From positions 111,001 through 175,000 of the forward strand of contig JAVKOQ010000097.1 in the NCBI GenBank assembly GCA_031835245.1: DNA of 64,000 nucleotides, read 5' to 3'. Shown one piece after another: positions 2,253 to 58,632 of the stretch. The translations under genes and the position numbers were made by a program. This DNA comes from Balamuthia mandrillaris. Its lineage: Eukaryota > Discosea > Longamoebia > Balamuthiidae. Numbering within the stretch: position 1 is the first letter of the stretch; the number at the start of each line of letters is the position of its first letter. A model generated the notes under the pieces. That model worked only from the letters and a program-made list of their open reading frames with translations, was not told the origin of the DNA and searched no databases.

Positions 2253-5200
2253 ATGGTGAGTACTGAGGAGTGCAGAGATTATTATGTGGCTTTGTTGATT
2301 GAGCCGAAGCAGCAAGCGCGCCTATGCTCCTTTTTCTGAAGCGTGTATCTGAGTTCCTTTTTTTTATTTGGGCTTTTAACAGTCCTCAGGAAAGAAAGCT
2401 AAGCCTGTCACTCCTTCGGTCCTTCCCAGCGAGGAAGAGCAAAGAAAGCTCTTGGAAGAGGCCCAGGACAAGGTCAGAAAAGAGGCCTTCCAAATGAAGC
2501 GCTGCTTGGTACGCCTACCTCCTCCTCCTCCTTCGTTTTGTATGCCCAACCGTTGCGCTGCTCTTCGTGGAACTCACTCCTTTCTTCTCTTTTAGGACCA
2601 CCAAAAACTGATGGAAGCGCTGAAGCACGCCTCTACCATGATTGCCGAACTGCGGACCTCGATGCTCTCCCCGAAGAACTACTATGAACTTTGTGAGTCT
2701 CTCTTGCGTGCCACTTCAACGCGGTTCTTGGTGCTAACTTTTTTTTTTTGCTTTCGTTTTTTCGTACAGACATGGCTGCTTTTAACGAGTTGAGGCACCT
2801 GGAGTCTTTCTTGGCAGAAGAAAGGCAAAAGGGCAAGAAAATGAGCGAGCTCTACGAAGTTGTGCAGTATGCCGGCAACATCTTGCCCCGCCTGTACCTC
2901 CTCATCACCGTGGGCAGCATTTACATCAAGTCCAAAGAAGCCCCTGCTAAGGATGTATTGCGTGATCTTGTTGAGATGTGCCGAGGAGTTCAACACCCCA
3001 CCAGGGGCCTCTTCCTGAGGAATTATCTCTCCGAAATGAGCAAGGACATGCTTCCTGATACCGGCGGCGAGTACGAGGGGTAAGTTCCACGCTTTTGCGC
3101 CATTTTTCGCTCGTTTGGTAATGGTCTGACCCGTTTTGACTTTGCTTGTTTCCTGCTTTTGCTTGGGCATTATAGTGAAGGTGGAACGGTCAAGGACTCA
3201 GTTAGCTTCATCCTCCAAAACTTCACTGAGATGAACAAGCTGTGGGTGCGCATGCAACACCAAGGCCCCGTCAAAGACAAGATTCGGAGAGAAACAGAGC
3301 GCAAGGAATTGCGCTTGTTGGTTGGCAAGAACTTAGCCCGCCTCAGTCAACTTGAGGGAGTTGATGTTCCCCTCTACAAAAAGGTGAGTATCATACTCTC
3401 AGTTTTTAGTTGGATTTGCTTATCGTCGTTTGTCCCTTAGAGCGTATTGCCGAAAATCATGGAGCAAATTGTGAGTTGCAAGGATCAGATTGCACAACAG
3501 TATTTGATGGAGATTGTTATTCAGGTGAGACCAGTTGAGTTCTATTCTTTCGTCTAGCCGTTCATTGACTCTTGCTTTGCGTTTAGATATTCCCGGACAA
3601 TTTCCATCTGGAAACGTTGGACATGTTCTTGGAGACTTGCTCCAAGCTTCAGGCTAATGTGGAAATCAAGACAATCATTGTCAGTCTGATAGAACGTTTG
3701 GCAAACTATGCTACTCAACCAGGAAATCACATTCCTGCAAACATTAATGTTTTCGAAATATTTTTCAAGCAGATCAAAACTATCATTGAGGTCTCTTTGC
3801 TTTGTTATACTTCATTTGGCATGTTTTGCTTGATGCTTAACATTCATTCCTTGCCTTTCACACAGGAACAACCCAAAATGCCTCCTGAGGACATGCTTGC
3901 TCTCCAAGTTTCCTTGCTTAATTTGGCCCTCAAAGTTTATGCCGGCAATATCGACTACGTAGATCAAGTTTTGAACGCAACTTTCAATTTGCTCTCCAAG
4001 TTTAAAGAACAAAAGTGCGTTCTTTCATTCCCTTTCTTTTTTGCGGTGATAGTGATTGCTGATTTATCCTTGCTGTTCTTCAGAGTGGATTACCAAAAAC
4101 AGAGTTGTGTCAAGCACATCTTGAGTTTGCTTACTATTCCACTGACCACGTTCAACAACGTGCTCACGCTCATTAAGCTCCAGAATTACTCTAACATCAT
4201 CCAGTTCCTGTCGTACTATCATCGCAAGAAGATGGCTATTGACATGGTGCAAAACGCCATCGCAAATGAGACTATCATCCCTGAACCTGAAGATGTGGAA
4301 AGCCTCTTCTTCGCCATTCATCCGCTCCTCAAGGATGAAGAAGACCAAGACGAAGTTGATGAAGTCCGTCTCCTTTTGCACTTATGTTCTGCCTTCTATC
4401 GTTTTAACAATCTTCTATTTCTAGGAGGACTTTGAAGAAGAGCAAAATGCTGTTGCCTCGCTGGTTCACCTCTGTGATAACTCAAGCCCTGAAAAAGTAT
4501 TCAAGGTATTTATCGTTATTATTTAGTGTAATTGTTTTCGTTGCATCGAGAGCGCGGTAAGTAACCTTTTTGCAATGGGTTCTAGATTTTCGCCACCGCC
4601 AGGAAAGTGTTTGGACAAGGGGGCACCAAGCGTATAAGGCACACTCTCCCCCCATTGGTCTTCCGATCTTTGAAGCTTGCTACTCAACTGAAACAACGTA
4701 CTACGGATGAGGTATTAAAAAAAACATTTATTTATCTCTCTCATTCTAATGGTGTGCGTTGGCCGACAAACAGGACGAGTGGCATAAAGTCGGTACACGT
4801 ATCTTCAAATTTGCCCACGAGACAGTGACCGCTCTAGCAAAGACGGACTACAAAGAGTTGGCAATGCGCCTATTCTTGCAATGTTCCAAGGCTGCTAGCA
4901 CCTGTGGCTTCGAAAGGATTGCCTACGAGTTTTTGACGCAGGTGTTTGAGATCTACGAGACCGACGTGGCGGACTCCAAGGCCCAATTCCGCGCTATCAA
5001 CGAAATCATCGGAACCCTTCAGACTTTGCGCTGCTTCTCTGAGGAGAACTACGACACCTTGAGCACAAAGACAGCCATGCACTCTGCCAAGTTGCTGAAA
5101 AAACCTGACCAGTGCCGTGCGGTTTACATGTGCTCCCATCTATTCTGGACAGGGGATGGAGAGGTAACAAAACTGGCGCCCTCTCTCTTTCGTGTTGAGA

Positions 5201-34900: not shown

Positions 34901-36700
34901 CTAGTTGAACACATCCTTGCCGTCAATATCTTTGCCCTTCTTCAAGCTCTTCTTCTCCTCCTTATCCAACAGTTTCTGCTCTCGCTTTTCCTTGCGCTGC
35001 CGCGCCTTCTCCATCTTGGCCTCCATCTTGTCCTTCTTCTCGAGCTTCTTGCGGATCTCGTTGGGCAGCTTGAGATAGCACTTCTTACAGAGGGGCTTGC
35101 CCTCCCAGGCGCAAATCTTGGAACCGACAGAAAGTGGGGTGTCGCAGGTCTGACAGGCAAAGTGCTCCTTGTGCCAGATCTTGCCGAGGGCCTCTACAGC
35201 GCCGTGCGTGACGGGCTTGTTACACTTGGCGCAGAGACGACCAAAGAGAATCTTGTAGTGGACCTCACAGTAGGGGAGGTTGTCGTGCTCGTAGAACTGA
35301 CTGCCAGAGAAGGGTGTGTGACAGTGGGCGCAGCAAAAGTGCTCCGGATGCCAAATGCGTCCCATGGCGGTCATTGAGCGTCCGGTGATGGGCTTCCTGC
35401 AGCCAGCACAGATGTCCAGCTGGAGCTTGTCCCAATCCTCTTTGCAGTAGAGCTTACCCATGTGCTCGTGGCAGTCTCCGTTGGTGAACTCCTTGCCGCA
35501 GGCCTCGCAGCGAAAGTGCTCAGGATGCATGCGCTGTCCGTTGAGGGTGACGTACTCTCCGATGATAGGCTTCTTGCAGCGGCCACAAATGTGTATCTTG
35601 GGGTCCACCTCCACCTGTAAGGCTGCCTTGCAAACATCGCAGTAGGGTTCTCCGCCGGCCTCCTTGTACTTCTTACCTACGAGGCTCACGCCGCAGCCCG
35701 TGCACACAAAGTGCTCTGGATGGAAGAAATGGCCCAGGGCCTTTACCACCTTTTCCTTGATGGGCTGCTCGCAGGCAATGCACCGCGGTGCAAAGAGTTC
35801 GTAGTAGTGAGGCTCGCAGTAGGGCTTGCCCTCGTACTCCAGGAACTTGCCCCCCGGAAAAGGCTGCGAGCAGTTGGTGCACACAAAGTGCTCGGGGTGA
35901 TAGTGCTTGCCCAAGGCGTTGGTCACTTTGCCCACTACCGGCTCTCCGCAGTAGTCACACGGAGGGCCATGGACGGTAAGCTTCTTGCCCTCTGGTGTGA
36001 ACTCTGCTACTCCTCCGATGTTTCCTCCCCCTCTCCCTGCGTGCTGTGGCCGCACAAAGGCAGCACCTGGTCCTGTGGAAGCCAAGCCAGGTCCAGTGGA
36101 AATGGGGCCTGGTCCAGTTGACACAAAGCCTGCTCCAGGTCCGGTGCTGACCCTGGGGCCTGGTCCTGTGCTTACAAAGCCCGCCCCAGGGCCTGTGCTG
36201 ACCCTGGGGCCGGGTCCGGTGCTGACAAAACCGGGTCCAGTGGAAATGGGGCCTGGTCCTGTTGAAACAAAGCCTGCACCAGGTCCGGTGCTTGCTCTGG
36301 GACCTGGCCCTGTGCTAACAAAGCCTTGGCCAGGTCCTGTGCTGAGAATCGCAGTAGCACCGCCGGAAGCAGTCAACCCTGCACCTGCGGAAGAAGGCGG
36401 TTGGTTTATACTTCCCAACAAGTCATCAAGCTCATTCATCGAGAAAGCGGAACCGCCCTGGCCAGCGGTCTGCCCTCCAATGTCTTGCATAAGACTGTCC
36501 AACTCCTGGCACAGCAACAGCATGAATTCTTATTCATAGGGAGAGAGAAAGAAAGGAAGAGAGAGAGAGAGAGAAAAAAAGGCTGTACCGCTGTGAGCGA
36601 ATCCAAGGAAGTCATCTTGCGCTTCTTTCTTTTTCCCGTCCTTCTTGCTGCTGTTGACGCAAATGACTTTTTTTTTAGGGGTGTCTTTGTTTGTGGCCAT
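34901..36700 (-). CDS. Five-LIM adhesion protein with LD motifs (PINCH/paxillin-like)
   Basis: Focal-adhesion type scaffold. Exon 1 starts at 36700 (MATNKDTPKKKVICVNSSKK) and joins in phase near 36591 to the main exon (EFMLLLCQELDSLMQDIG). Two LD-like helices follow the paxillin pattern: ELDSLMQDIG and NELDDLLGSI. Next comes a linker of about 100 residues of STGPG repeats. Five LIM domains then begin at CDYCGEP, CIACEQP, CGRCKKP, CAGCRKP and CAKCNKP, each with the full set of Cys, His and Asp ligands. The C-terminus (CKKCYLKLPNEIRKKLEKK) matches the way PINCH ends after LIM5, then continues into a Lys/Glu-rich helix. Paxillin has four LIM domains and PINCH has five but no LD motifs, so this protein mixes both. 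It shares a divergent promoter with the 10-kb kinase gene. Confidence 0.92.
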
Positions 36701-37181: not shown

Positions 37182-37986
37182 ATGGCAGACGGCAAGGAGA
37201 AAGGGGAACAACAGCAACAACAACAGCGGGGGCAAGTGGCGGTGTTCAGCTACTCCCGTTTCCTGCGCCGCAAGGAGATCAAGGACACCAACATCTACGT
37301 GGTCAATGACCAGGAGGCCAACGACATCCTGGCCTCTTTGTCTCCCGGTTCCTCTCTTCTCCGCCTCGACTCCAAAGATGCCAAAACCAACAAGAGCAAA
37401 TCCGCGTATGTCTCCTTTCTTCTGCTTCTTGTTCTGCTTCTGCTTCTGCTTATACATCCTGCTCCAATGAATTGTGAACAGGCTCATCGTTTCGTACAAG
37501 TTCTTGAACATGACGTTTCACCATCGGCTTCCAAGCTTGCTGATGAATCTCAAACGGAAGAAGAAGCAAAAGAAGAAGGACCTAGCAAAGCGCTCCTCCT
37601 CCTCCCCCAGCAATCTCCTCAAGTGCGTGCCCTCCAACAGGACAACCTTCTATTTTGTACAAAAGGTTCTGTTGGAGTTTTTGCCACGGCTTGAGCAGTT
37701 CATCAAGGAGTTCTCTTGCAACAAAAACTATGTCGGTGCGTTGTTCTTACTCCAACTTTTTCTTTTCAGTTTTCATTTATTCTTTGATCGGTAACGCGAA
37801 CAAAACTTTGTTTTGATGTGACTCACCGGTGGCTTTGCCTTGCGTGCAGAGTTGGACCTGGAGGGAGATGCGGAGCTCGAGAACGAGTTGTCTTTTCGCC
37901 CCTTCATCATCTATCCCACCACCAAGGGTGACTTGGTGATCAAAAAGAAGAACTTGGTTAGTAGAAGATGAAAGATCTTCTCTAGG

Positions 37987-38032
<46 letters not shown>

Positions 38033-41000
38033 TTGTTACACAAATGCACACCACTGGGTCTTCTATAAGCTCACCACCAATCCAAACAACACGACCTGCA
38101 GGAAGGAGAAGTCCAGTCCACCATCATCAGCACAAACTTTTTGAGAGGCTGCTTTGTGGTGCAGAGGCCCGATGGCTCCACCGCTGACTGCGAGCGGTTC
38201 AACGATGCGCTATTGGGTTTGACTCCGCCCTCTGCTTTATTCTCTGCTCACTTTGCTCTTCCCCTCTCTCCCTCTCTGCTCTTTTTCTCACGCTGAAAGG
38301 CAAACCTACTCTGTGGAAAAAAACAGGCTTCTTACAGATCCAATCCAGCGATACAGCATCGGTCCTTCGTGCTTTGGACAAGAAGCAGGAGGATGGGCGT
38401 TACACCATCAAGGAGACCGATAAGGACGGCAATGAGCTCCGCATAGATGACGACGACGCGGGCAGCAGCGGCGGCAGGGCCATTCCCATCAAAGGCAAGG
38501 ACAAGGACCGGATGATACATACCCTTAAGGCTGCCATCTTTGGGGATGAGGAGGTTAAGCCTTTCTTTTTTAAAAACAAACTTCTTCTATCCATCTTGTT
38601 GTTGTTCTTCCTGTGCTCTTCATTCTTCATGGCTGATAAAATTGTTTCGTGCAATAATAGAACAAGGACCTACCACTGCAAGGTGATCTCAAACAAACAG
38701 CAATGGTCATTCTGGACACACTAAAGGCCCTTCGTAAGAACGACGTTGCCGGCAAGATGGACTGGATCAACCGAGGCATCTTTAAAATCCTCATCACGGT
38801 TTGCTTCCTCCCTTTTGTTGTTTCTTTTTGCTCAACAGGTCTAAAACTCTCTTTGCTCTCTTCTTTCCTCCATGTTACAAACAGATCATTCACAAGAACG
38901 GGGATAGCGAGGAGAACATCCCCTTCGTGCAGATCATTCGCCAGTTGATAGCAAGCAATCCAGAAGGCAGCGAGCAATTTTGTCAGCTTCTCTTCCAGCA
39001 TCTCAAAGAGAACGAGACAGAGTGTCTCGGCATGATTAGCGCTCTCTGGCTTTTACTCAAGAGCAAACCGTTTCGCACTGTTCGTCACCTCTCTCTCTCT
39101 CTCTCCCCCTTTTCTTTCTGCTTACGAACAATTTTATTAAGGTGTTTGTGAGGCTGTCTGGAGCAAGCATCATCCAAGACATCTTTTTCAAAGCATCTTA
39201 CGAGCTTATTGGTCAGCAAGTCGGAACAAGCATAGGCAAAGTCTTCAATCGAGCTGTGCGATCAGGCTCCCTTACCTCTCCCCGAACTTCAACTGCTCGA
39301 ACCTCAACGCCTGGCAGCAGTGTATGCTTAGTTGACTTCTCCTTTTTGCTCATTCCTTGATTGTCCTGCTGACCCTAGTGCTGCTTTACCTCCTCATTCG
39401 TATAACAAATAGACGGAGGAAGGTGAAACTACTCCCCGCTCTCCCTCAGCTCCAACCCCCACCACGTGGCGGCACCAAGCCACTTCTGCCACTGCTACCC
39501 CTGGTAATAAATGGAGAAACTCTCGTGCCTCGTTGAAACTCCAATCCTACCAATCCTTGGTGCAGTCAGGTTCTGCCAGCCCTGCCGCCAGCCCCCGTTC
39601 CATGTTTATGCAGGGACCACCAGCCCTCTCTTGTGGCAATCTACGCTCAAGCTCTCCCTCTCCTCCACCTTTCTTCGGCTCTCCATCTCCTCGACCTTCC
39701 TCTCCTCACGGAGGAGTACCTTCAAGCCCTGACTCAGCGAGAAAGAAGCCAGTGGTACCTGTGCTCAACATCCCGAAAAAGGGGAGAGAACAAGCCCTTT
39801 CTTCTCGGTCGAGTCGCAGGCTTTCCAGTATGTTCTCCCAAGGTAGCCAATCCTCTCTCGAAACCCCACAATATCACACCGGCAGTCTTCCAGGTAGGCA
39901 CCAGTCTTCATTCGGTATTTATGCTATTTCGACTTGCCAGCTAATGTTGCTGTAAATAAGCAGATGTACAAACAGAATTTGAGCAAAATGCTGTTCAAGA
40001 ATTTACGACCTTGGCGACGAGCCTTGGAGCTACATGTTTGTATCTCTTTAGCAATCTTCTTATTGATTGTTCTAACGTGCTGTTCTCTCTCTCATCTGTA
40101 GACATGACGGCAGATCTTACGGCATTGATCGCTTTTAAAGAGAACGATAAAGACCTTTCAGCACGAAAGAGCATAAAGCAATTTTCCAGGCCTGTAAGTC
40201 TTCACTAACATACCCCTACTCTCCGTTTGGCTAAACATTAGATAGATTAACGTAAACTCTCCATTCACTAGCAAACTGTGAAGAAAGACGAACATCGTAT
40301 ATCAAGATTCAGAGGTTCTACGACATACAAGATCAAGTGTCACATCCTTCATTCCTTGTCTATCATTACCAGTTATCCTGACCTACGAAAGGTTCATCGT
40401 CTATTGTTTTTTGCTGTTTAGACCGAGTCTTACTCTTTCTCTTCTTTTCAACACAATCAAATAGCAAATCCGGTATCCATTAAACATGCTTTTTTCTGAG
40501 TTGGTGGTTTGCGCAAAGGTTGACCGTAGGGACACGCAGTATCGCAAGCTCATCTATTCCGTGCTGGCAAACTACTCAGAGGAAGTAGAAATTATGCACA
40601 GAGTTAAGTGGAAGGGCTTAACTCGGGCTATGGATGAGGAAGGAATGCTCCACTTTCGTCGTAGGCTCGATACAGTTCTCTTTCGGCTGGACCAGAGACT
40701 TCAAGACACATATCAAAGCCAGGTAATGATATTTTCTGTTTTTACGATCTCGAAAACATACATACTTAGATTATTATTTATGGATGATTCTCTAGCACGT
40801 GGACAACATGGAACTTTATTTATCTCTTCTAGCTGAGTATATACGAAATTGCCCCTCGCGGGTTATTACTGCTCAAGTCATAGACGTTTGTATGGAAACG
40901 CTGTTGCGTGTGAAGGTTTGTCGTCTACCTTCCGTAAACGAAACATTTAGAACATTTGTGCTCACCCACGGCTACAGTATGTCATATTCAATCGTGGCAA

Positions 41001-44000
41001 GATAACCTCAGAGAAACTCAAGTTAGTGCGGGTGTTTCATCGCCTACTGGAAGTCTTTGATGAGCTTGCTGCGCATAACCGGCATGGCCCCACAAACGAA
41101 TTGTTGTTGGACCTCCTTGTGGACTTAAATGAGAACAATTTTCAATTCATCAAAATGTATGCAAAGGAAGTGCTGCTGAACACAAAGTTGGAGAAGAAAA
41201 TACAGGAAAGCTCCGATGATGGAGAGTCTTTGTTGGACGAATATAGGATACGGATCATGCAGCATTACTCAGTACGATGCCTCGCGCACGCGCGCTCTCT
41301 CTCTCTCTCTCTCTCTCTGTATGGTGCACAGGCTGAGCCTGCCTTTACACTCACCCAGGTTTGTGTGGACATGATCAACCTAAAATTTGATTTGTTGGAT
41401 GAAGAGGAGGCAAGCAAAGGTGGAAGAGGAGGAGCAGTAGGAGAAGGCGGTGGTAAATTCCAGGATCTACTATTAAGAGACAACTACAACCTCATTATGC
41501 AAAAACTCGAGTTTCTGATTCTTCCGGTACATCAGCTCTCACTCTCGCGTGTTTGGCATACATTGATATCTTATATCCTCATTCCATTTCAGACAGGATA
41601 CATAATGCAATTTTTGACAACGGGCTCGGACTATCATAATCTACCAGTCAAGGTGGAAATGCTTCGCTTTCTCATAAAAATGTTCGAAAATCCTCGCTCT
41701 CCATTTGTGACCAAGAAGCTTTACGTTGGCACTTTTATCAAGTGCGTTAATTCTAGCTCTATAGAAGTTATTGCATTTACTGACTATTTGCCTCCGTTTG
41801 TTCAGCTTTCATTACATCAGATTCATCAAGCTTTACAACAGCAACAAGTGGGATCCTTCTACAACCGAATTGTGTAAACTGCATCTCATGTCCTTACTTG
41901 CCTTTGCGAAGCACAAGAACAAGAGGATAGTGATGAAGTTTTACCAGTTAAAGGCTATGGATTATCTCGTCCGTATGATAACGCTGGAATATGAGATCAA
42001 CCTCAACCGAGAAAAGTTCATTGAGAAGCAGGCAAATCAAGACAAGGAAAATAGCGGCACTGCATCTCCTCGGGACCCTTCTTCTCCGCGTGGTGCAAAA
42101 CGAAGGGCTCAAAATAAGAAACAAGGAAAAGGAGGTCTGGCGCGCGGCAGTTCTCGTATGCAGCTAGCTTCATCACCAGGAGAGTTTTTGTTGAAGCAAG
42201 CGCAACTCGAGCACAGCAGTAACAATTTGAATACAAGAAAGCAGCAACAAACAACCGCGAATGTGTCAACACAAAACGGGCTGGCTTCTCCAAAACTTGG
42301 TATTCGCCTTTCTTTAAACTTAGCAGGTCTACAAAAAGGTGGTGCTTCCACGGTTCCACCTAACAACAACCAAAATTCAATCGCCAATGCAAAAGCTTCC
42401 CCTTCATCCTCATCCTCTTCAGACACAGAATCGGACGAAGATAAGGCGGCAGATGAAGGAAAGACCGGCGAGGATAAGAACAAGGAACCGGACGAAGAGG
42501 AAGATAAGGAGGAAGAAAGCAGTGGCACTGAGACAGAAAGTGAAAGCAGCAGCGATGAAAGTAGCAGCTCGGATGAGGATGAATCGGAATCCAGCACGCC
42601 ATCAAAGCCACAACTTTTTCTCAACCTGTCCGGCCTCACCAAAGGATCAAAGATACTGCCACCCCAATCTCCGCTTCGCAATTCCTCTCCTGGTGTTTCC
42701 AACGCAAAACAAGCAAGCAGCGGCAATAAGCACGAACCACTGCCTTCATCCTCTTTTGCTACCACTGCTTCCTCTTCTCTACCTGTTTCTTCAAGCTCTC
42801 CAGTGATAGTCAAAAAGCCCTCGCTTGCTCTCAACTTGAGCGGACTACAGAAGGGCTCCGTGATCCGAACCTCATCAGGAAGTGCTCGAGGGGATAACAA
42901 GCTTGGAAGTTCGAATGACACGTCATCTGCGACGAAAGACCTCGGAGAACTTTCCTCTAACAGCGAGAAGGAGAAGGAAAAGAGCAAGCCCAATGGCCTG
43001 CCACTTGGTAAAGGCTTTTCGTTGGATCTAACGGGATTGGAGAAAGGATCTAAAATTGGCGGAGTTGGAGGCGGTGGTGGAAGCAAGATATTGGTGCCAC
43101 CATCTCAACCAAATGACCAACGCGGCCAAAAGACCCAGGACAATGTGCACTCCGACGATGAAGATGGTACAACAAGCAGCGAAGAGGAGGAAGGAAGCAG
43201 CGAAGGTGATACAGGAAGTGAAGATAGCAGTGAGGACACCAGTGAGGGCGAGAACAAGGGGGCAAGTGTTGCTGCTGCTGAAAATGGACCCAAGTGGGTT
43301 GCGAAACGGCCACAAGCAGCACCTGCCAAAGCTAGCACTCCTTCCTTCATTCCTATTCTTAACCTAACGGACGTTCGCAAGGACAACCCTAAAAACCTCC
43401 TCAACAACAAGAAAGACAAAGCCGTGGAACAAGTTGTTCAGCCCGCTGCTGTCGCCACAGACCGGAACGAGAGCAATGGAGGGCCGCCACCCAACAGCTC
43501 TTCTTCAGTTTCTTCCTTTGCAAATGTCACTTCGAAGCCTTTGAAAACACGGCACGACCGCAAGATCACCAGCAATGACCCTCCCAACGCCCCTCCTCCC
43601 AGACATTCTTCCTCTGCTGCCCCAGATCGTAAACTCAGCAACCCAGAGGCGCTCTCTGACTCAGAGACATTGCAGATTATGGAGGACATTGACCCCACCT
43701 TCAAGGGCTTTCTCAGCAATCTCTTTGAGTCCAAGATGACAGCTGAGGATCCAAAGCTACAATTGCTGTTTGGAGGGGCTGGTGCTAGAACTAGCCTCAA
43801 TCAGGATGCAGCATATCTCTACCGTACTACCAGCCAAAGCACCCTCAGCCCTGATGAGCTCATCATTGAAAATCAGCTGTATCTGCGTGAAAGAGAAGAT
43901 AGAAAGCTCTACCATGATCCTGATTTGCATATCACGGCCCTTTTGCTTATTTTCAGCCTCATGTTGTCCCCCAAGTACGTGTTTAAGCCGGTTTCTTTAA

Positions 44001-44785
44001 ATTTAAAACGCTTGACTTATGAATTTTACAAAGTGATACTTTGGAGTCTCTTTACAACGACCAGTTTCCGCTCAACAACAAAAAGTTGAACATTCCGTTC
44101 TATCTAAGCATGCGTACGTAATTGGTTTTAATTCCCAGTTTCCATCAACTCCTGCTCATTAGCCATATTACACTAGATATTAACCATCCAGCAAACGCTG
44201 GCATCATCCCCGAGTTGACATCGAAGACGCTGGAGCTTGGCACTTCACCGTTTCGGCTGCTCAAGCTGCTGTGCAAGCAGCTCTATGATACCTCCATCTT
44301 CAAGAACATGCAGCGGATAGGCTTAGGTACATATGGCTCAGTCTATAGAGCCTATCTCGAGTCGGAGAAGATGGAAGTGGCCGTTAAGCTCATGCAAGTG
44401 CCAAAGAGCATTCACGACCGTTGTGTCTTGCACGACATATTTACCGAGATATTGGTAATGGACATGTACAAAAAAGACGAACGCGTTGTTCATCTGTGCG
44501 TATTTTTTCCCATTTGCGAGCTTTTATTTTCTTTGTCCCTTACCTTCAATGTTTAACCTGCACCTGTCCTTTTGCTTTTAGATTTGATTATGGAGTGGAT
44601 GACGAGCATTATTGGATAGTAATGCGCTTGTACAAGGACAGTCTGAAGGGATGGGTTAAGCATCAGAATCCTGATGCCCCGTTCTATGAGACTCTTCCCC
44701 TTTATCTCAACATTTTCGAGAAAGTTCTCACCACAATGAAGTTTCTCAGCGAATGTCGTATCCTTTTATTTTTTCATGTAGCTCG

Positions 44786-44828
<43 letters not shown>

Positions 44829-45704
44829 AATAATTTTTTTTGTATTGATACTTACATCGGATTGCAAAGATGTAAATCACTACGACCTGAAGTGCGACAA
44901 CTTCTTATGTCATCCCATCAATCCGGATACTCCTGACGAAGACTTTTATGAACAACTGAATGATCAACCGAACTTCAGCGTTTGTCTAGCAGGTGAGGAA
45001 TTTGTATTTTTCTTTCCAGCTTTCTTCTCTTCTGTTCTGAATTATCAGGTCCATCGCTCACCAAATCTTTTGTTTTCTCACCCTTCTTATTGATGTCCAC
45101 TTCATGAAACCGCAGACTTTGGAGAGGCTAAATACTACACAACACCTGAAGAGGGATACACCACCCGCAATCGTGGCACGGAGCTAATCAAAAGCCCCGA
45201 GATGCTCCGTGTTGCCTACGCTAGCCAAAAAGAGAAGGATTCTTATGACAGAAGAAAGAAGGTATAGCCTTTTTCTCCCTCTATCTTTTCTTCCGTTGCT
45301 TATCACGTTTGCGACAGGTGGGAGCGAACTCGGCCAGCGACATTTGGTCGTTGGGCTGTCTATTGTTCGAGTTGTTGACGGGGCAGTTCCTGTTTTTGGA
45401 CAAGGACCCTTGCCACTTCTTCATCCGTGTGACATGCCCTGGGCAGGTACTGTACAGCTTATTCCTCTGTAATGTATAAACTTACCCACATTATTTGGTA
45501 AATCCTGGTATTTGTAGGAACTCATTACCAAAGAAAAGAAAGCTATGATCGAAAACGAGCAGCTCCTGATCGACCTCATAGAATACATGCTCTTCAGGGA
45601 TCACCTATTGCGGCCAACCATAGATGACGTGATCATGCGGTTCAGAACGGTTAAGCCCCAACTCCTGGAAAAAGCGAAACGATATTCCAACAAGCATCAG
45701 TACT

Positions 45705-45749
<45 letters not shown>

Positions 45750-47173
45750 GCTTCTCTTTTGGAGGAGTGTTTAATAACAATGGAATTTTGCATGATTGCT
45801 TGCAGTGGAGAATTAGAGCATATGCTAGCCCCTAACAGAGGAAGGAGCAACTCCTTTACGAAGCAGCTATATGATAGCCTTTGTGTGTCTAGCGTCAACT
45901 CGGTGCGAGAGCGAAAGGGTTCCCGTTCGGAGGATAACAGATCCCAACCCAGCACCCAAAACAACTCGCCCTCATCCTCACTTCGAAGTAGCCACACTGC
46001 AGCCTCAGGAACTAATTCCAACGATAGCACTCCCAAAGCCACCACTGTGGAGCATATCAATCGTAGAGAAATCGTCATTCCCAGCGATGTCACCGGATAC
46101 TTTATCGAGCACTGCAGCAAAATTGTTGACCGGCTCTACGTTGGATCTTACTGCGTTGCCTCTCAAAAGTCATTGCTTAGAGACCAACTCGATATCCTTC
46201 TGAGCCTTCTCTCCTCCCTCTCATTCCTTGCCTTTTTTTCCTTAACTCTTTCACACGTATCACGCATATTGTGAATTGTACAGGAGCCCCCAATGTCCAC
46301 GAAGAGCACTTTAAGTACCTACATGTCAAGCTATTGGATGATCCCTACCAAGACATCCTCTCCCACGTGCACGAGGTCATCGCCTTCATCCGTAAGGCTT
46401 TGGTCAAGAAGGGCAACGTCCTCATCTACAGCGAGAAAGGTGTCTCTCGCTCTGCTGCCATGGCCATCGTCTACCTCATGGAGACTCGACGGATGAACTA
46501 CTTTGAGGCCTTTGTCTTTGTGAAGGAGAGGAGATACATCATCCAACCCAACCGTGGATTCGTACGACAGCTGGCCGCATGGGGAGAGAACATGGTCAAG
46601 CAGCTCAATCTGAGCATTAACAAGCAACAGTTCCAATGCATTTGTAAGGCTACCGTGTTCTCCCTCTTCTCTGCTTTGAACCTCAACGAGGATGGCAAAG
46701 ACAGCGACGTCAAGCCATGTTGCTGCCGTGTATGTTTATGTTTCTCTTCTTTACTTCTCCTCTCTCCGTTTCTTGTTTTTTCTAACCAGAATGTTTGTTA
46801 TACTTTATAGGATGCCTCGAGTTCATCCTGCCCCAACATTATATCTTGTTTCGATTTTTTGGAAGTCATGAAAGAAAAATACCACATGCGAGGGCGCACC
46901 CTGAACTGGGGCTACACCGACCTTTCCAACGTGTTTGGCGACTTTAAGCGCACGACCAAGGAATGCAAGTCCCCTGCTTTGTCCGTCCATCGAAAAAAGT
47001 GGAAGGTCTTCAAGTGCAGCACCTGCGGATTCATCACCCATGCCCTGCCTCTAAAACCGCCCTTCCCCTCCAACCCACCCCAAGAGCACGCGCAGTGTAT
47101 AGCTATCGTCACCAACAACAACAGCCCAGCAGCTGCAACCGACATTCCCCGGCAAGTTCCACTGTCTGTTTAG
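37182..47173 (+). CDS. Giant protein kinase-pseudophosphatase fusion
   Basis: One gene of about 10 kb, clearly over 2,000 residues. From the ATG at 37182 (MADGKEKGEQQQQQQRGQ) the first 4.6 kb encode mostly helical sequence (LPRLEQFIKEF, DMTADLTALIAFKEND, RVFHRLLEVFDELAAH, RIVMKFYQLKAMDYLVRMI), perhaps an armadillo/HEAT-like solenoid. A 2-kb exon (about 41860-43976) is low complexity and carries five LNLSGLxKGS-type motifs. A kinase domain follows (44310-45690), then a dual-specificity phosphatase fold (46095-46620) and a tail with FKCSTCGFITH. Joins across 43976-44187 are in phase (YLSM|HINHPANAG), so kinase and N-terminus are one reading frame. The stop is at 47171-47173. No full-length family is known to me. 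Some of the early exon boundaries (39900-40480) were not fixed. Confidence 0.85.
37990..38030 (+). repeat. (CT)n array in kinase-fusion intron
   Basis: About 20 CT units on the sense strand. Further arrays in introns of this gene lie at 39089-39105, 41297-41320, 44790-44827 and 45706-45744. Confidence 0.95.
42300..43380 (+). other. Five spaced LNLSGLxKGS-type motifs
   Basis: Within one exon of the kinase fusion these motifs recur, separated by 60-110 acidic, Ser-rich residues: RLSLNLAGLQKGGAS (about 42306), QLFLNLSGLTKGSKI (about 42611), SLALNLSGLQKGSVI (about 42821), GFSLDLTGLEKGSKI (about 43015) and IPILNLTDVRKDN (about 43354, most diverged). Flanks do not align, so the motif itself is under selection. 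It probably forms a short amphipathic docking segment. The partner is unknown. Confidence 0.85.
44310..45690 (+). other. Protein kinase domain of the fusion
   Basis: Landmarks are the G-loop RIGLGTYGSVYRAYLE, VAVKLM (ATP-binding Lys), SECHVNHYDLKCDNFLC (catalytic loop with Tyr in place of Arg, so a non-RD kinase, with Asp, Lys and Asn kept), DFGEAKYYTTPEEGYTTRN, GTELIKSPEML in place of the usual APE, ASDIWSLGCLLFELLTGQFLF, and RDHLLRPTIDDVI. All residues needed for phosphotransfer are present, so activity is likely. The catalytic-loop intron at 44758 has the donor GTATCCTTTT. Confidence 0.85.
46095..46620 (+). other. Dual-specificity phosphatase domain lacking the catalytic Cys
   Basis: The fold is clear: IVDRLYVGSYCVASQK, LG|ITHIVNCTGAPNVHEEHF, LLDDPYQDI, VLIYSEKGVSRSAAMAIVYL, MNYFEAFVFVKERR and IQPNRGFVRQLAAW. 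The signature HCxxGxxR reads YSEKGVSR: His is replaced by Tyr and the nucleophilic Cys by Ser. Arg is kept. By comparison with STYX-type proteins this should bind phosphopeptides without hydrolysing them. Confidence 0.88.
46192..46256 (+). other. AT-AC (U12-type) intron in the pseudophosphatase domain
   Basis: 65 nt starting ATATCCTTCT (exact minor-spliceosome donor), with TTCCTTAAC at 46238-46246 (exact branch-point consensus) and ending CAC|AC at 46256, 11 nt after the branch adenosine. Removing it joins QLG|ITHIVNCTG, the expected phosphatase strand. No GT-AG choice gives this. Confidence 0.92.
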
Positions 47174-47835: not shown

Positions 47836-50800
47836 ATGCAAGAGGTTGCATTGCCCGCTGAAGCTCCGGAGGGCAGCCGCAGCTCAGAGAAAGGGCTTGC
47901 ACCTCATCGTCATCTTCGGGAAGGCGAAGCCATCAAGGAAGGAGAAAGTTCCCACTCCACGCCGTCGAGTCTTGAGAGAGGGGCTCCAGCAACAGCGACG
48001 ACAACAGGACAGAAGAGAACGGCAGGTGAGGCCTTTGCTTTTGCTCCACCGTCTTCTTCTCCATTCAACGAAGGGGAACCTTCGCAAAGAGGAGAAGGTG
48101 CAGGGGGAGAAAGAAGAATGGAGGAAGCAGAAAGAGGAGAAGAGCGAACGCCTGCTACAGAGGATGTAAAGTCCGCTACCAACGTCATGCATGACACGCA
48201 CCATGCTGACCTTACTTCCCCAAAAGCATCCTCCAGATTGGTCTACAAATGGTGCGTACTTTTTGCTTCGGTAGAACACCACGTCTGCCTCTCTCTTTCT
48301 CTCTTCTCTCTCTGTCTCGCTCTCGCTCTCTTCACTTCTCGACTCTGATTCGCTCTCTTCTGCTCTCTTGGGTTGGCTTCAGCTCCTCTTTTGCTCTTTC
48401 ATTTTTTTGTTAACATTCACCTAAAGGTTGAAGGAAAACTATGAAACAGCAGAGGAGTCGAGCCTCCCAAGAAGTGCACTCTTTGACCATTACCTCCAGT
48501 TTTGCGAGGAGGAGGGGCTGGAATCCATCAATGCGGCCAGCTTTGGAAAGCTCATACGCACTATCTTTCCACAGCTCAAAACGCGTCGCTTGGGCACGCG
48601 AGGTAACTCCAAGTATCATTACTATGGCATTCGCATCAAACCAACCTCGAAACTAGCCTCTCCTACCTCCGATGATTCGACTTCTTCCTCTTCCTCCACT
48701 TCTCCCTCGTCTTCTTCAACTACTGGCCACAAACGAAAGTCTTCTCACAAGAAAGAGTCTGCTACTAGCAGAGGACGCCAATCAACATCCTCCTCAAAGA
48801 AAGCCAAGTCTCAACAATCGTCTGCCTTGCCTCTTGGGTAATTTATTTATTTCTTTTACTCCCCTTTCATTTTTTGTTTTTGAGATTACTGTGATGCTTA
48901 CTGGCATTTTACAGCATTATACCGGTGGAGGATGGCATACCTGGTCTGAATGCAGCATCCTTTGCAACGATACCCACCATAAACACGAAGCAACTTCCGG
49001 ATTTTGTGGATGTGGACCACAACTCCTTGCCTCCAGATCTTTCCCATGAGCTTGTACAGAGTTTTATGAGACTCTATCAAGCTCATTGCCAACACATTTT
49101 GGACACAATCAGCGGACAAAATCTGATGGATCTTAAGCAAGTGCTGAGTCACTTTTGGCAGGGATTGTCTCCTCAGTTCAATCCTCTTTTATCTTCGGAG
49201 GACTTTGCCAAAGAGATATGTGACAAGGATCACCTCCTTTATACGGTTAGCGCTTTTTTTCTCTCTGCTCTGCTCTCTGCTCCCCCCTCTCTTACATTTC
49301 TTTCTGAATGGCTCGTCAGATTATCATCAATGCATTGATACCAAACGTCTTGCAAGAACTGCCGCTGAATGTGTATATGGTTCGTGATTTCAGCAAAAAC
49401 TTTGAGACATGGCTATCTATGGCTCTGGAAGGTCTTCCTACAATTTTGTGTGCTCAAAAGCTTCACGGTATGCATTAACTGGTAATTTGTTTTGCGCCCT
49501 CTGTTCATGAACTCTCTTTCCATTCTGTAGTTTGCAGCAAGTTTACACAAACGCTACGGAAGCATGCCTGTCTAAACCACTTGGCACAAGCATCTAGGCA
49601 AGTCCTAAATGCCCAGAACGGGACCCATATTGCTCAAATGTTGGCTGATTGGGAAGCAATAGACTTTAGCTTCATTGCCACCCAGGCTGATTGGCTTTGT
49701 CCTGCTGGCGAGGAAACGGCTGCTTTGTGTATGTACCAGTTAAAAACTTTGTTTATCAAACTTATATTTTTGTTACATGATTACAGTACAAGAGGAGTTT
49801 AGACACTTTTTGCAGCAGCGGTGCGAGATAGAGCAATGGGCGCACTGGTTGCAAACCGTTGTTGACCGCTTTCTCAAGGTTAGATCAACCCTTTGATTTG
49901 GATTGATGAATCTCACCATAGCAATTGAATCATATTCAGAAATGCATCGATCTTCGCCAATTAGGTTTGTCCTCCCAACAACTTCTGCTCAAGTGGTCGT
50001 TCTACAATTCTCTCATCATACGAGACCTTACTATACGGAATGCTTCAACCTTTGGTTCGTTGTCCCTCCCGTTCCTTTCTGTTATGTTTTCAATCTTTTT
50101 ACCTTCTTTTTAATGATTTTTTTTGTTAATGCTAACGTACTTTTGTTTCACAATAGGTTCATTTCATGTATTGCGCACTTTCTTTGATGAATACCTTGCT
50201 TATACAGTGGAACAACGATTGTACATGTATCACACCCAAACTCCCTACTTGCACGAAGAAGCAACCAACAGAGTGCCTGCTGCAATGATTCCAACTTCTG
50301 CTCCTACCAGTAGCAATAACACCAAAGCAACTAGCACCTATCATCCTCACCGTTCTCCCTCGCCCCCCTACAACACACAGCGACCATCCTCTCCGTCCTC
50401 GCTAACCTCCGTAACGCCTCGCCTTATCAACAACACCTCTCCTCTTCCTCCTCCGGCCACCACCGCTATCTCCGCTACCACCACAATACCAACCGCCTCC
50501 ACAACAACGACAGTCGCCTCACGGGAGGAAGTCTCTTCCTCTCCTTCCCTCTCTTCTTCGTCTTTGCCTCCGTCTGGCATTGCCAGCCCAAAATCAAAAC
50601 TCGTATCTCCTTCCTCAGCTTCATCCTCTTCCTCCTCTTCAATGATGCATCCCCCCTCTACCACCAACAACGTGGTTTTAGTTAACAGCAGGACACCAAC
50701 AACAGTAGCAGCTGCTGGTGGAAGTGGAGGCAGTGGCCAATGGTTATCTCCTTCTGTTGCGGAGGGGGGACCTGGCGGTGATAGCTTGCCCTTGTTAGGA

Positions 50801-51418
50801 AGTTATTATCCACCAATCCCTCCCTCTTCGACTAGCTCTACCGCCGCTGCCTCCAGCAACAACATCAATGACGGTGCCGGGTTCTTTGACGGCTTTGCGA
50901 GGGCGCCTTCCTTCAGCAACGGTCTTCCCAGCTACTTCCTTCCATCCTCCTCCAAGGCCAGCTTCTCTTTGGAGCCCGGTGTCATGGACGTGGTGGGCGT
51001 GGGTGGTGCCTCCGCGCTAACATCTTCCTCTTTCCGTAAGCCCAGTTTTGGCAGCTTTGGCTCGTTTTCCTCCGAGTTTACACGCAGTCTCTTTCGCAGC
51101 AGCTTTGATCGGAGCGGCAGCATTGATAGAGGAAGCCTCGATCGGGAATGCATGCCTCAGCTGTTTCTCAACCTCAGCACACCTCACATCAACTTCAACT
51201 CTTTTTCTGCGCCTTTAGAAAAGGAGCAGGACTCCACCGCTTCACTGCACAACAACTCAGCAGCCTCCCCCTCCACCACCTCTTCTTCCTCCCCCTCCAT
51301 CACAACTGCCGATTCTTCTTATCGCGGGGATTCTTCGCGCTCCTCTACCACCACCACCACCACCACCAGCGCTTCCTCTTCCTCTCCTTCTGCCCCCACC
51401 AACAACGTGCCAACCTGA
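47836..51418 (+). CDS. RFX: RFX-family winged-helix transcription factor
   Basis: Sequence-specific DNA-binding protein of the RFX family, which binds X-box sites. The ATG at 47836 begins [14 protein letters not shown]; the N-terminus is low complexity. The DNA-binding domain reads [37 protein letters not shown] and [31 protein letters not shown] (about 48243-48640). Conserved downstream blocks are also present: [58 protein letters not shown] and [17 protein letters not shown], corresponding to the extended dimerisation region of RFX1-3-like proteins. The last exon is a long Ser/Pro/Thr-rich tail ending PTNNVPT at 51418. The B/C/dimerisation blocks make an RFX1-3 type more likely than RFX5. 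Confidence 0.93.
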
Positions 51419-56630: not shown

Positions 56631-57713
56631 TCAACTGCCACTATTGCAGCAAGAGGATTTAGCAGGAGGATTGTTCTGTGCGCCGAGTTTGATTTCACTG
56701 CTGTTCCTCCGTGTGGGGCCTGCCTCCCTGTTCTGATCGTTCTCCAGTATTTTGCTGACTAAAAACTTGGCCGCTTTATCGATGCCAATGTTGTCTTTGG
56801 CTGATGTTTCCTCCCTACCATGATTACCCATTAGTTTTCTCTTTTTCCTCTCCCTCTCCCTCTCTCCCTCTCTCTCCCTCTCTCTCCCTCTCTCTCCCTC
56901 TCTAATATGACTAAAGAGTTACAAGGTAGAAAGCGTACCAGCCAGCAAAGCCGTGATCCTCGCAGTACTTATCCATTTGAGCAGCGTTACGTGCAAAACC
57001 TTCCTTTGCCAAGTCGCACTTTATGTCGAGTGGTACCAATGAGAAAACGCAAGAGAGAAAGGAGAATGGAGAGAAGAGTTACTTTGTTTGCAAGCAAAAC
57101 GACCGGGATAGGCCTGTCATCAGGCGGCATGGTGACTTTGGCATCAATGTCGTTCTTCCACTTCTCGACAGCCTCAAATGTGGCTACTCGCGTGACGTCA
57201 AAAACTACGAAAGCCCCTACGGCCTCCTTGTAATACACACGAGTCATGTTACCGAAACGTTCTTGTCCTGTGTTTTTTTGAAACATGTTAAACAAAAATA
57301 ACGGATACGAAGAAATGAAAGGAGGACGAACCTGCAATGTCCCAAAGTTGAAGCCGAACAACTGTTTTGTTGTCCCAATTGATGACTTTGAGGGCAAAGT
57401 CGACACCGATCTGTTGCGTTTTGTGTTAAGAAAAGAGTCTTGAGTTAACAAAGGAAAAGTAGGACAAGCGGTTTTAACAAAGTAACACTTTCTTACCGTT
57501 GATTTGTAATGCATAGAAAAAATGTTGTGTACAAAACGTTTTATGATCGAAGTCTTACCTGTGCCAATGTCTCCCACTACCAACACCTTGTAGAGGTACC
57601 TGTTGGCAGGAATAAAAAAAAAACAAGAGCAACTTTGGTGTGAGACAAAAATGGCAACGGGAGAGGCACCACCACCGCACGTACTCGGTAATCCCATCAT
57701 CGTGATCGCCCAT
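56631..57713 (-). CDS. RAB32: Rab32/38-type small GTPase
   Basis: Membrane-traffic GTPase of the Rab32/38 group, linked to lysosome-related organelles. The start at 57713 (MGDHDDGITE) splices in phase to YLYKVLVVGDIGTGKTSIIK (P-loop). Next are RFVHNIFSMHYKST, IGVDFALKVINWDNKTVV and QLWDIAGQERFGNMTRVYY; the IAG in place of TAG is the Rab32-group signature. FEAVEKWKNDIDAKVTMP, VVLLANK and ETSAKDNIGIDKAAKFLV follow, and the C-terminus is SSCCNSGS with the prenylation cysteines, stop at 56631. About 220 residues. Introns have a CT-rich array on the + strand at 56848-56902, so GA on the sense strand, against the trend in the window. Confidence 0.92.
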
Positions 57714-58632
57714 CTTTGTATCCTCTGGTTCGCGCAACTTCTACTTCTCTTTTTTTTTTGTTTGTAAAACAAAAAAATTGCGTTAAAAAAATAAATAGTG
57801 TCACCAAGAGGTTTTCTTTTGTTTCTCGATCGGCGTGTGTATCGTCCGAAGCGAACGAAACACAAAGCTTTACCTGCAACAACACAACAAGCACCACCAC
57901 CACAACCCACAACCCACCGCCGCCAAAGCTTGCTAGTATCCCTTCCTCCCCCCTTTGCCAGCAACAGCACCACCGAGTAAAAGGCCTGTTGCTGTAGACT
58001 GTCCGCTTATACGTTTTTTTTCTGCGGCAAAAGAAAAAAAAAAGGGGTGATGTGTGCCGTTTCCAAAAATAGGATAAATGACATCAGCAGTTCCCTTGTT
58101 TGAGGGGTTAACATGGCCAACGTCAAAGTAAAGAAAAAAAGCGTACAACGCGAGCAAGGAGAATGGAAGGAGAAGATGGATGCTCCCCTGATAGGCTGGG
58201 CCGTGTCCCTCATGCAGTGCCGTCGCACCCATTACCACCACCACCACCATATTCTGCTTCTGATTCCTTCCTAGCTCCTTCACACGCTCGCTCTTCTTCC
58301 TGTTTAGCAACGACAGCATACTTTCATCTACCGCTCTCCTCCTCCTCCTCCTCCTCCTCCTCCCTCCTCCTCTCCTCCTCCTCCTCCTCCTCCCTCCTCC
58401 TCCTCCTCCTCCTCCTCCTCCTCCTCCTCCTCCTCCTCCCTCCTCCTCCTCCTCCTCCTCCTCCTCCTCCTCCTCCTCCTCTCCTCCTCCTCCTCCTCCT
58501 CCTCCTCCTCCTCCTCCTCCTCCTCCTCCTCCCTCCTCCTCCTCCTCCTCCTCCTCCTCCTCCTCCCTCCTCCCCTCCTCCTCCTCCTCCTCCTCCTCCT
58601 TTTCACAAACATCAGCACTGCCAGCATATGTC
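57714..58632. other. Divergent region of Rab32 and cyclin K, with (CTC)n array
   Basis: About 920 bp with no supported exon. It holds T-rich and A-rich tracts (57750-57800, 58010-58045), a GGGGTTAAC near 58104 and a trinucleotide array. Cyclin K might have an extra 5' exon here, because the family's usual N-terminal WYWDK-like segment is not seen in the model. Confidence 0.4.
58336..58602 (+). repeat. (CTC)n trinucleotide array, about 265 bp
   Basis: Nearly pure CTC units with occasional phase slips (TCCCTCC), immediately upstream of the cyclin K ATG. It generates long poly-Leu/Pro/Ser or poly-Glu/Gly/Arg readings that are not genes. Confidence 0.97.

What the first reader, a model, noticed from the sequence alone, without database searches (positions are those of the whole stretch)
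37182..47173. Kinase-pseudophosphatase fusion with a novel 1,500-residue N-terminal half
A single reading frame links a long helical and low-complexity region, a kinase with all catalytic residues except the Arg of HRD, and a dual-specificity phosphatase fold in which HC of the HCxxGxxR signature is replaced by YS. The phosphatase part should act as a phospho-binding module next to the kinase, so the protein could recognise sites it has itself phosphorylated. I know of no described protein with this full architecture; kinase plus phosphatase-fold fusions may exist in other amoebae.
Basis: partly seen in the sequence, partly recalled or inferred. Interest (0 to 1): 0.82.

Follow-up and report, generated by a model that had tools for sequence, protein, structure and literature searches.

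The report
Ancient kinase fused to dead phosphatase
An amoeba gene encodes one giant protein that joins a working-looking protein kinase to a phosphatase that has lost its cutting residue, and relatives of this protein occur in slime molds and Naegleria, with more distant ones in ciliates, liverworts and green algae, so it is a little-studied old signalling machine rather than a one-off oddity.

Summary
Confirmed and extended. 37182-47173 is one 28-exon gene of Balamuthia mandrillaris; spliced, it equals the public 2579-residue protein P0001, with Pkinase and DSPc domains. The kinase has HYD for HRD; the phosphatase loop reads YSEKGVSRS for HCxxGxxR. The architecture is not unique: relatives run through Amoebozoa, Heterolobosea and Carpediemonas, more distant ones through oomycetes, ciliates, liverworts and green algae. 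H[YF]D is a hallmark (56 of 58 proteins); none of 34 readable family phosphatase loops has HCxxGxxR. The N-terminal half is predicted as helical solenoid plus, at the start, an SH2-like domain (no Pfam match); the C-terminus adds a conserved eight-cysteine module. Best mechanism, inferred: a non-RD kinase on a scaffold with a STYX-like phospho-reader in cis; that the fold is only a docking unit is nearly as likely. A Dictyostelium kinase with a dual-specificity phosphatase domain was noted in one sentence in 2006 (PMC1420674). One intron inside the pseudophosphatase is U12-type AT-AC. New variant of a known kind.

The parts
37182..47173 (+). Whole coding region, 28 exons: 37182-37405, 37482-37735, 37850-37956, 38102-38216, 38327-38553, 38661-38798, 38885-39079, 39142-39321, 39413-39893, 39964-40035, 40102-40193, 40272-40391, 40465-40722, 40796-40915, 40978-41271, 41359-41526, 41593-41741, 41806-43974, 44034-44113, 44177-44495, 44582-44757, 44870-44992, 45116-45261, 45318-45446, 45518-45699, 45806-46191, 46257-46729, 46811-47173
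   Evidence: Spliced translation equals public protein P0001, 2579 aa
37281..37737 (+). SH2-like domain, residues 34-160 (exons 1-2 and the junction to 3), FLVR-type Arg at residue 61
   Evidence: Predicted beta-alpha-beta-beta-beta-beta-alpha order, pLDDT 36-82 by ten-residue block; profile-profile match to 14 Balamuthia SH2 sequences, probability 69 over 25 columns, against at most 1.6 in 100 column shuffles; no Pfam match
37867..38331 (+). Small beta-rich domain with C-terminal helix, residues 166-235, fold not assigned
   Evidence: Predicted structure, pLDDT 79-86
38494..39252 (+). Helical repeat block 1, residues 290-457
   Evidence: Predicted structure, pLDDT 84-95 for residues 321-440
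39253..39971 (+). Low-confidence linker 1, residues 458-643, with short motif KKPVVPVLNIP (39752-39784)
   Evidence: pLDDT under 45; similar motif in relatives
39972..42037 (+). Helical repeat block 2, residues 644-1142 (confident from about 710)
42038..43681 (+). Low-complexity Ser/Asp/Glu-rich linker 2, residues 1143-1690, with four copies of L[ND]L[STA]GLxKG (residues 1235, 1337, 1407, 1471) and FIPILNLT
43682..44298 (+). Conserved pre-kinase region, residues 1691-1855, including the linking exon 44034-44113
   Evidence: Unbroken homologue alignments
44299..45661 (+). Protein kinase domain, residues 1856-2160; HYD at 44878-44886
   Evidence: Pfam Pkinase 2.4e-31; motif positions
46101..46588 (+). 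Pseudo dual-specificity phosphatase domain, residues 2272-2412; dead loop YSEKGVSRS at 46427-46453
   Evidence: Pfam DSPc 1.2e-29; fold match DUSP1 C258S E=3.5e-13
46192..46256 (+). U12-type AT-AC intron (ATATCCTT donor, TTCCTTAAC branch site, AC end), splitting the codon of Gly2302 in the pseudophosphatase domain
   Evidence: U6atac RNA in the same genome
46625..47053 (+). Eight-cysteine C-terminal module, probable zinc binder, residues 2425-2540
   Evidence: Eight Cys columns invariant or in at least 90% of 11 aligned relatives; profile found in 38 of 58 proteins, 11 of which built it

Best explanation
The gene encodes a member of an old eukaryotic kinase family: SH2-like domain, beta-rich domain, helical solenoid, flexible linkers, non-RD kinase with H[YF]D, STYX-like pseudophosphatase and an eight-cysteine module. 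The solenoid and the linker motifs hold partners; the kinase has an aromatic residue where activation-loop phosphate would be sensed and so is probably not switched in that way; and in Balamuthia the Cys-to-Ser phosphatase fold binds phosphorylated residues, as a natural substrate trap, either on the kinase's substrates or on the protein itself, and so holds or gates the kinase on phosphorylated partners. Shown here: the gene, the domains, the residues, the conservation. Inferred: that the kinase is active, that the dead domain binds phosphate, and that the two cooperate.
For: One protein: exact splice match to P0001, unbroken homologue alignments over the join, and a transcript-derived ORF marked complete of a relative, P0013 (name field), with SH2-like, helical, kinase and phosphatase parts. 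Kinase Lys, Glu, Asp, Asn and the Asp of DFG (DWG in four dictyostelid-type proteins) are kept in the aligned family rows; H[YF]D in 56 of 58 proteins (the other two are P0024, cut off inside the kinase, and P0038, a Perkinsus protein without this kinase). Dead loop: Cys replaced by Ser with Gly and Arg kept in 14 of 34 readable loops, from Amoebozoa and Heterolobosea; HCxxGxxR in none of the 34. Fold: best structure match is DUSP1 C258S, a laboratory Cys-to-Ser mutant; STYX 2r0b is also matched. MK-STYX has Phe-Ser in place of His-Cys (PMC8269279, passages). Loop 5th of 138 windows in conservation among nine proteins, but these were chosen because they keep the loop. SH2-like N-terminus.
Against: In 20 of 34 readable loops the signature is incomplete, so a fold-only role is the common denominator of the family. 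The four heterolobosean members compared have no acid Asp at the clearly aligned place. Liverwort and Coccomyxa relatives show no phosphatase domain by my profile. No binding or kinase assay is known to me. The SH2-like call has no Pfam support; it rests on four sequences (Arg kept in three, Trp in P0010) and one weak further hit, P0031. Solenoid scores are at the level usual for helical models (note).
Confidence: 0.42

Rival explanations
1. The phosphatase fold is no longer a phosphate reader but a structural or protein-docking module (a MAP kinase-binding surface like STYX and MK-STYX, or a clamp on the neighbouring kinase), and phosphate binding is incidental.
For: 20 of 34 readable loops lack the full xSxxGxSR signature while the fold is still detected; closest folds are mostly MAP kinase phosphatases and other DUSPs.
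Against: In nine proteins that keep the loop it is more conserved than the domain on average (the nine were chosen for the loop).
Confidence: 0.38
2. The kinase is itself largely inactive and the whole protein is a scaffold.
For: The HRD Arg is missing in all 56 proteins with a readable motif.
Against: Lys, Glu, catalytic Asp, Asn and the Asp of DFG are kept; loss of the HRD Arg alone defines non-RD kinases, many of which are active (recalled, no call).
Confidence: 0.12
3. Two genes wrongly joined: an N-terminal helical protein and a separate kinase-phosphatase.
For: A long low-complexity exon lies between the halves.
Against: Exon 44034-44113 links them in frame; many relatives have both halves in one protein; a search limited to proteins of about 270-870 residues found none with helical block 2 alone (capped candidate list).
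Confidence: 0.03

Closest known systems
MK-STYX (STYXL1) and STYX pseudophosphatases
   Same: DUSP fold, catalytic Cys lost; MK-STYX has Phe-Ser for His-Cys, here Tyr-Ser (PMC8269279, passages); STYX structure 2r0b aligns
   Different: They are separate proteins without a kinase, solenoid or cysteine module in the same chain (domain drawing legend in PMC8269279)
[quoted passage not shown]
   Same: Kinase plus dual-specificity phosphatase domain in one amoebozoan protein; probably the orthologue (inference: three named dictyostelid relatives)
   Different: The passage gives no name, no dead active site, no N-terminal half and no wider family; no hit named D. discoideum was among my hits, so orthology is not tested
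Plant PHS1 (kinase-like domain plus MAP kinase phosphatase; recalled, no call)
   Same: Kinase fold and DUSP fold in one chain
   Different: Atypical kinase and an active phosphatase, as recalled; no relation tested
NEK kinases (name given to P0001 by its source)
   Same: Protein kinase superfamily
   Different: No NEK among the 60 best of 309 solved-structure sequences, which are led by TTK, ULK3 and PAK1

Membership tests
Pseudophosphatase of the DUSP/STYX type | Dual-specificity phosphatase fold | tested here: met
   Pfam DSPc 1.2e-29, over its cut-off; Foldseek DUSP1 E=3.5e-13
Pseudophosphatase of the DUSP/STYX type | Catalytic Cys of HCxxGxxR absent | tested here: met
   YSEKGVSRS; DNA read directly
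Pseudophosphatase of the DUSP/STYX type | Loop Gly and Arg kept so that phosphate can still bind | tested here: met
   Kept in Balamuthia; in 14 of 34 readable family loops
Pseudophosphatase of the DUSP/STYX type | No phosphatase activity, binding of phosphorylated partners | not testable with these tools
   Needs protein
Active MAP kinase phosphatase | HCxxGxxR active site | tested here: not met
Non-RD protein kinase | Kinase fold with Lys, Glu, Asp, Asn, DFG | tested here: met
Non-RD protein kinase | Residue before catalytic Asp is not Arg | tested here: met
   Tyr1984; Tyr or Phe in 56 of 58
NEK kinase | Kinase domain closest to NIMA-related kinases | tested here: inconclusive
   No NEK among the 60 shown of 309 solved-structure sequences; NCBIfam gave only bacterial models far below cut-off; no NEK profile was used
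SH2 domain | Pfam SH2 match over the curated cut-off | tested here: not met
   No SH2 match in 4 members at E up to 10
SH2 domain | SH2 order of strands and helices with FLVR-type Arg in strand B | tested here: met
   Model order beta-alpha-beta-beta-beta-beta-alpha, residues 39-153, Arg61 in strand 58-63, pLDDT 36-82 by block; profile match over 25 columns. Predicted, not solved; not filed as SH2
Armadillo/HEAT repeat protein | Alpha-solenoid of short helices in repeats | tested here: inconclusive
U12-type AT-AC intron | ATATCC donor, TTCCTTAAC branch site 10-15 bases from an AC end (consensus recalled) | tested here: met
   46192-46256; U6atac present

The most novel reading that the evidence does not exclude
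A kinase family as old as the main eukaryote groups, with no animal or fungal member seen here, that writes and reads phosphorylation in one chain: the kinase phosphorylates partners held on a solenoid scaffold, and two phosphate-reading modules, an SH2-like domain at one end and a naturally substrate-trapping Cys-to-Ser DUSP fold at the other, keep the products bound, making a self-contained positive-feedback or memory device.
Probability: 0.2. Interest if true: 0.8.

Novelty: new variant of a known kind. Interest (0 to 1): 0.6.

Why it matters
The STYX-type pseudophosphatases described in the review I looked at are separate proteins that regulate kinases from outside (PMC8269279, passages). 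Here one sits in the same chain as a kinase in both Amoebozoa and Heterolobosea, without a working active site in any member read. That makes the question of what a dead phosphatase does for a kinase testable in an easy organism such as Dictyostelium, and it points to an undescribed family among the kinases of early eukaryotes.

Tried and rejected
Unspliced reading frames show only exon pieces. The first splice model was out of frame from exon 5, corrected; then five junctions were moved to the public model, three because relatives agree with it, a fourth; the fifth (44177) I did not compare. Pfam on the N-terminal half gave only sub-threshold, unrelated names. PDB by profile: the SH2-like block gave qacR at E=0.081 ahead of an SH2 chain (2cs0) at E=1.5; helical block 2 gave none. 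One search compared the SH2-like block with an SH2 set in which minus-strand loci had been read on the wrong strand (probability 80); redone with 14 of 16 loci (two dropped for stops at the edge; some of the 14 are near-duplicates), probability 69. A search for shorter relatives of helical block 2 found nothing (capped candidate list). CRM1, IP3 receptor, importin and CTNNBL1 rows are tied and were not taken as relatives. The eight-cysteine module was not assigned: one of 11 members hits GFA at E=0.85. Linker motif [VIL]P.L.[LI][PT]: 19 copies in 12 of 25 proteins against a mean of 0.34 in 200 shuffles; the pattern was chosen after seeing these sequences, shuffles ignore relatedness, five copies come from one protein, linker ends were set roughly, and Balamuthia was not in that set; likeness to MAP kinase or calcineurin docking motifs is recalled and not claimed. 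Literature: all ten searches used. Searches looked for kinase-phosphatase, pseudophosphatase or SH2 combinations (one found no paper, the others are capped lists of which I saw titles and abstract starts); one search was set too loosely and returned only papers on protists. Only the sentence in PMC1420674 was found. Supplementary files could not be read.

Full report
WHAT IS THERE. The stretch 37182-47173 codes for one protein in 28 exons. Spliced by hand from phase-consistent junctions it gave 2586 residues without an inner stop. The protein database holds the same gene as P0001, 'NEK protein kinase [Balamuthia mandrillaris]', 2579 aa. The two models differ at five junctions; at four of them relatives agree with the public version by eye, and with all five moved the window gives P0001 letter for letter. 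P0001's contig length equals that of the window's contig (180,813), so the window is very probably from that B. mandrillaris assembly. PMC10471605 (passage) says that three Balamuthia genomes were annotated with RNA reads; whether P0001 comes from that work is not known to me. The 3' third of the gene has one match in the genome.

ONE INTRON IS UNUSUAL. Intron 46192-46256 begins ATATCCTT, has TTCCTTAAC near its end and stops in AC. Joined this way the protein reads LGITHIVNC, the most conserved nine-residue window of the domain among nine proteins compared, and P0001 uses the same junction. The genome holds U6atac RNA (two matches, 84.3 and 83.2 bits against a gathering score of 33), so the minor spliceosome is probably present. 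The exact pattern ATATCCTT-N20-50-TTCCTTAAC, taken from this intron, occurs twice in 64.8 Mb, once here, and its reversed control not at all; the GT version does not occur. The survey PMC10639083 does not contain the word Balamuthia and reports twelve minor-like introns in Acanthamoeba, none conserved (passages).

KINASE. Pkinase E=2.4e-31. Gly loop, Lys1885, Glu1905, Asp1985, Asn1990 and Asp2021 of DFG are in place; HRD reads HYD. In the 58 proteins collected, H[YF]D[ILV]K is found in 56; P0024 stops inside the kinase and P0038 is a Perkinsus protein without this kinase. So the aromatic residue is a family mark, not a defect of one gene. KSPEML or a close variant is found in all but P0024, P0037 and P0038. 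Four dictyostelid-type proteins have DWG for DFG. By sequence the nearest solved kinases are TTK, ULK3 and PAK1 (60 shown of 309); the NEK name is neither supported nor excluded.

PSEUDOPHOSPHATASE. DSPc E=1.2e-29. The predicted fold (11 sequences, mean pLDDT 73, about 69-95 by block over the phosphatase part after residue 10) matches DUSP1 C258S best (E=3.5e-13, 40% identity), with STYX at rank 33. The loop is YSEKGVSRS. Of 58 proteins 36 match a profile of this domain (11 of them built it); one of these, P0038, is outside the family and has an intact HCSKGVSR. Of the other 35, one loop could not be read and none of the 34 read has HCxxGxxR. Fourteen keep xSxxGxSR (Balamuthia, dictyostelid-type proteins, a Physarum-type protein that keeps the His as HS, and the heterolobosean set); P0011 has a Cys at the catalytic place but no Arg; P0007 keeps Ser and Arg without the Gly; others are degenerate and their alignment is uncertain. 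Among nine proteins chosen because they keep the loop, it ranks 5th of 138 nine-residue windows (0.73 against a mean of 0.49), which is partly circular. The acid Asp is aligned in the amoebozoan members and not clearly in the heterolobosean ones. MK-STYX carries Phe-Ser in the same two places (PMC8269279, passages).

C-TERMINAL MODULE. After the phosphatase fold comes a block with eight conserved cysteines. Its profile finds 38 of 58 proteins (11 built it), including ciliate and, weakly (E=2e-4), Phytophthora members in which no phosphatase domain is detected. Heterolobosean members lack some of the cysteines. The model there is of low to middling confidence, pLDDT 45-76. Zinc binding is an inference.

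FAMILY. Named hits: Tieghemostelium, Cavenderia, Polysphondylium, Planoprotostelium (PMC10639083 says that NCBI entry is Protostelium aurantium mislabelled, passage), Pelomyxa, Willaertia, Naegleria lovaniensis, Carpediemonas, Pythium and Phytophthora; Coccomyxa, Marchantia, Riccia, Paramecium. A midpoint-rooted kinase-domain tree of 53 of the 58 proteins groups the heteroloboseans (support 1.0), the dictyostelids (1.0; with the Physarum-type protein 0.99), a green group (0.89) and a ciliate group with unnamed relatives (0.96), while several deep nodes are weak (0.18-0.6). This looks like vertical descent of an old family. No named animal or fungal protein was among the hits; the searches are limited in reach and in length range. 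Whether plants lost the phosphatase fold or never had it was not resolved.

HOW IT PROBABLY WORKS. Steps shown: one chain, intact catalytic kinase residues, dead phosphatase with loop Gly and Arg, predicted solenoid, cysteine block. Steps inferred: the kinase is active without activation-loop control (non-RD behaviour, recalled); the Cys-to-Ser domain holds phosphorylated residues, as laboratory Cys-to-Ser traps do (recalled) and as STYX-type domains are described (PMC8269279, passages); the solenoid and linkers choose partners. The rival that the fold is now only a docking or structural unit is nearly as likely, because 20 of 34 loops in the family have an incomplete signature.

NOVELTY. [quoted passage not shown] The dead active site, the SH2-like and solenoid N-terminus, the cysteine module and the breadth of the family did not show up in the searches, which see one open-access library only. 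I file it as a new variant of a known kind: a STYX-type pseudophosphatase in cis with a non-RD kinase.

Noticed in passing
46192-46256: U12-type AT-AC intron inside the pseudophosphatase domain; U6atac RNA found twice in the same genome; the exact pattern occurs twice in 64.8 Mb.
   Followed up: partly
42314-43048 (exon 18): Four copies of L[ND]L[STA]GLxKG in the acidic linker; the strict pattern is in none of the linkers of 25 relatives.
   Followed up: partly
linkers of relatives P0002-P0028: Short motif [VIL]P.L.[LI][PT] recurs in linkers of this family, 19 copies in 12 of 25 proteins; possible docking site, pattern picked after viewing.
   Followed up: partly
48425-48838 and 50117-51415 (+): Downstream RFX transcription factor pieces (RFX_DNA_binding 7.9e-32; weak BCD_RFX piece 0.0012).
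   Followed up: no
34904-36529 (-): Upstream opposite-strand ORF with five LIM domain stretches (1.3e-68).
   Followed up: no
3587-4432 (+) and 56990-58006 (-): Vps35 exon (1.8e-49) and Ras-type small GTPase pieces (1.6e-20).
   Followed up: no
own genome: 72 SH2 matches at E<=0.001, some on apparently duplicated contigs: a large phosphotyrosine-reader set, in line with the 48 SH2 proteins reported for Acanthamoeba (PMC4053784, passage).
   Followed up: no
introns near 37990-38030, 44790-44826, 45710-45745: Long CT runs inside several introns of this gene, read as Ser-Leu repeats in unspliced frames.
   Followed up: no
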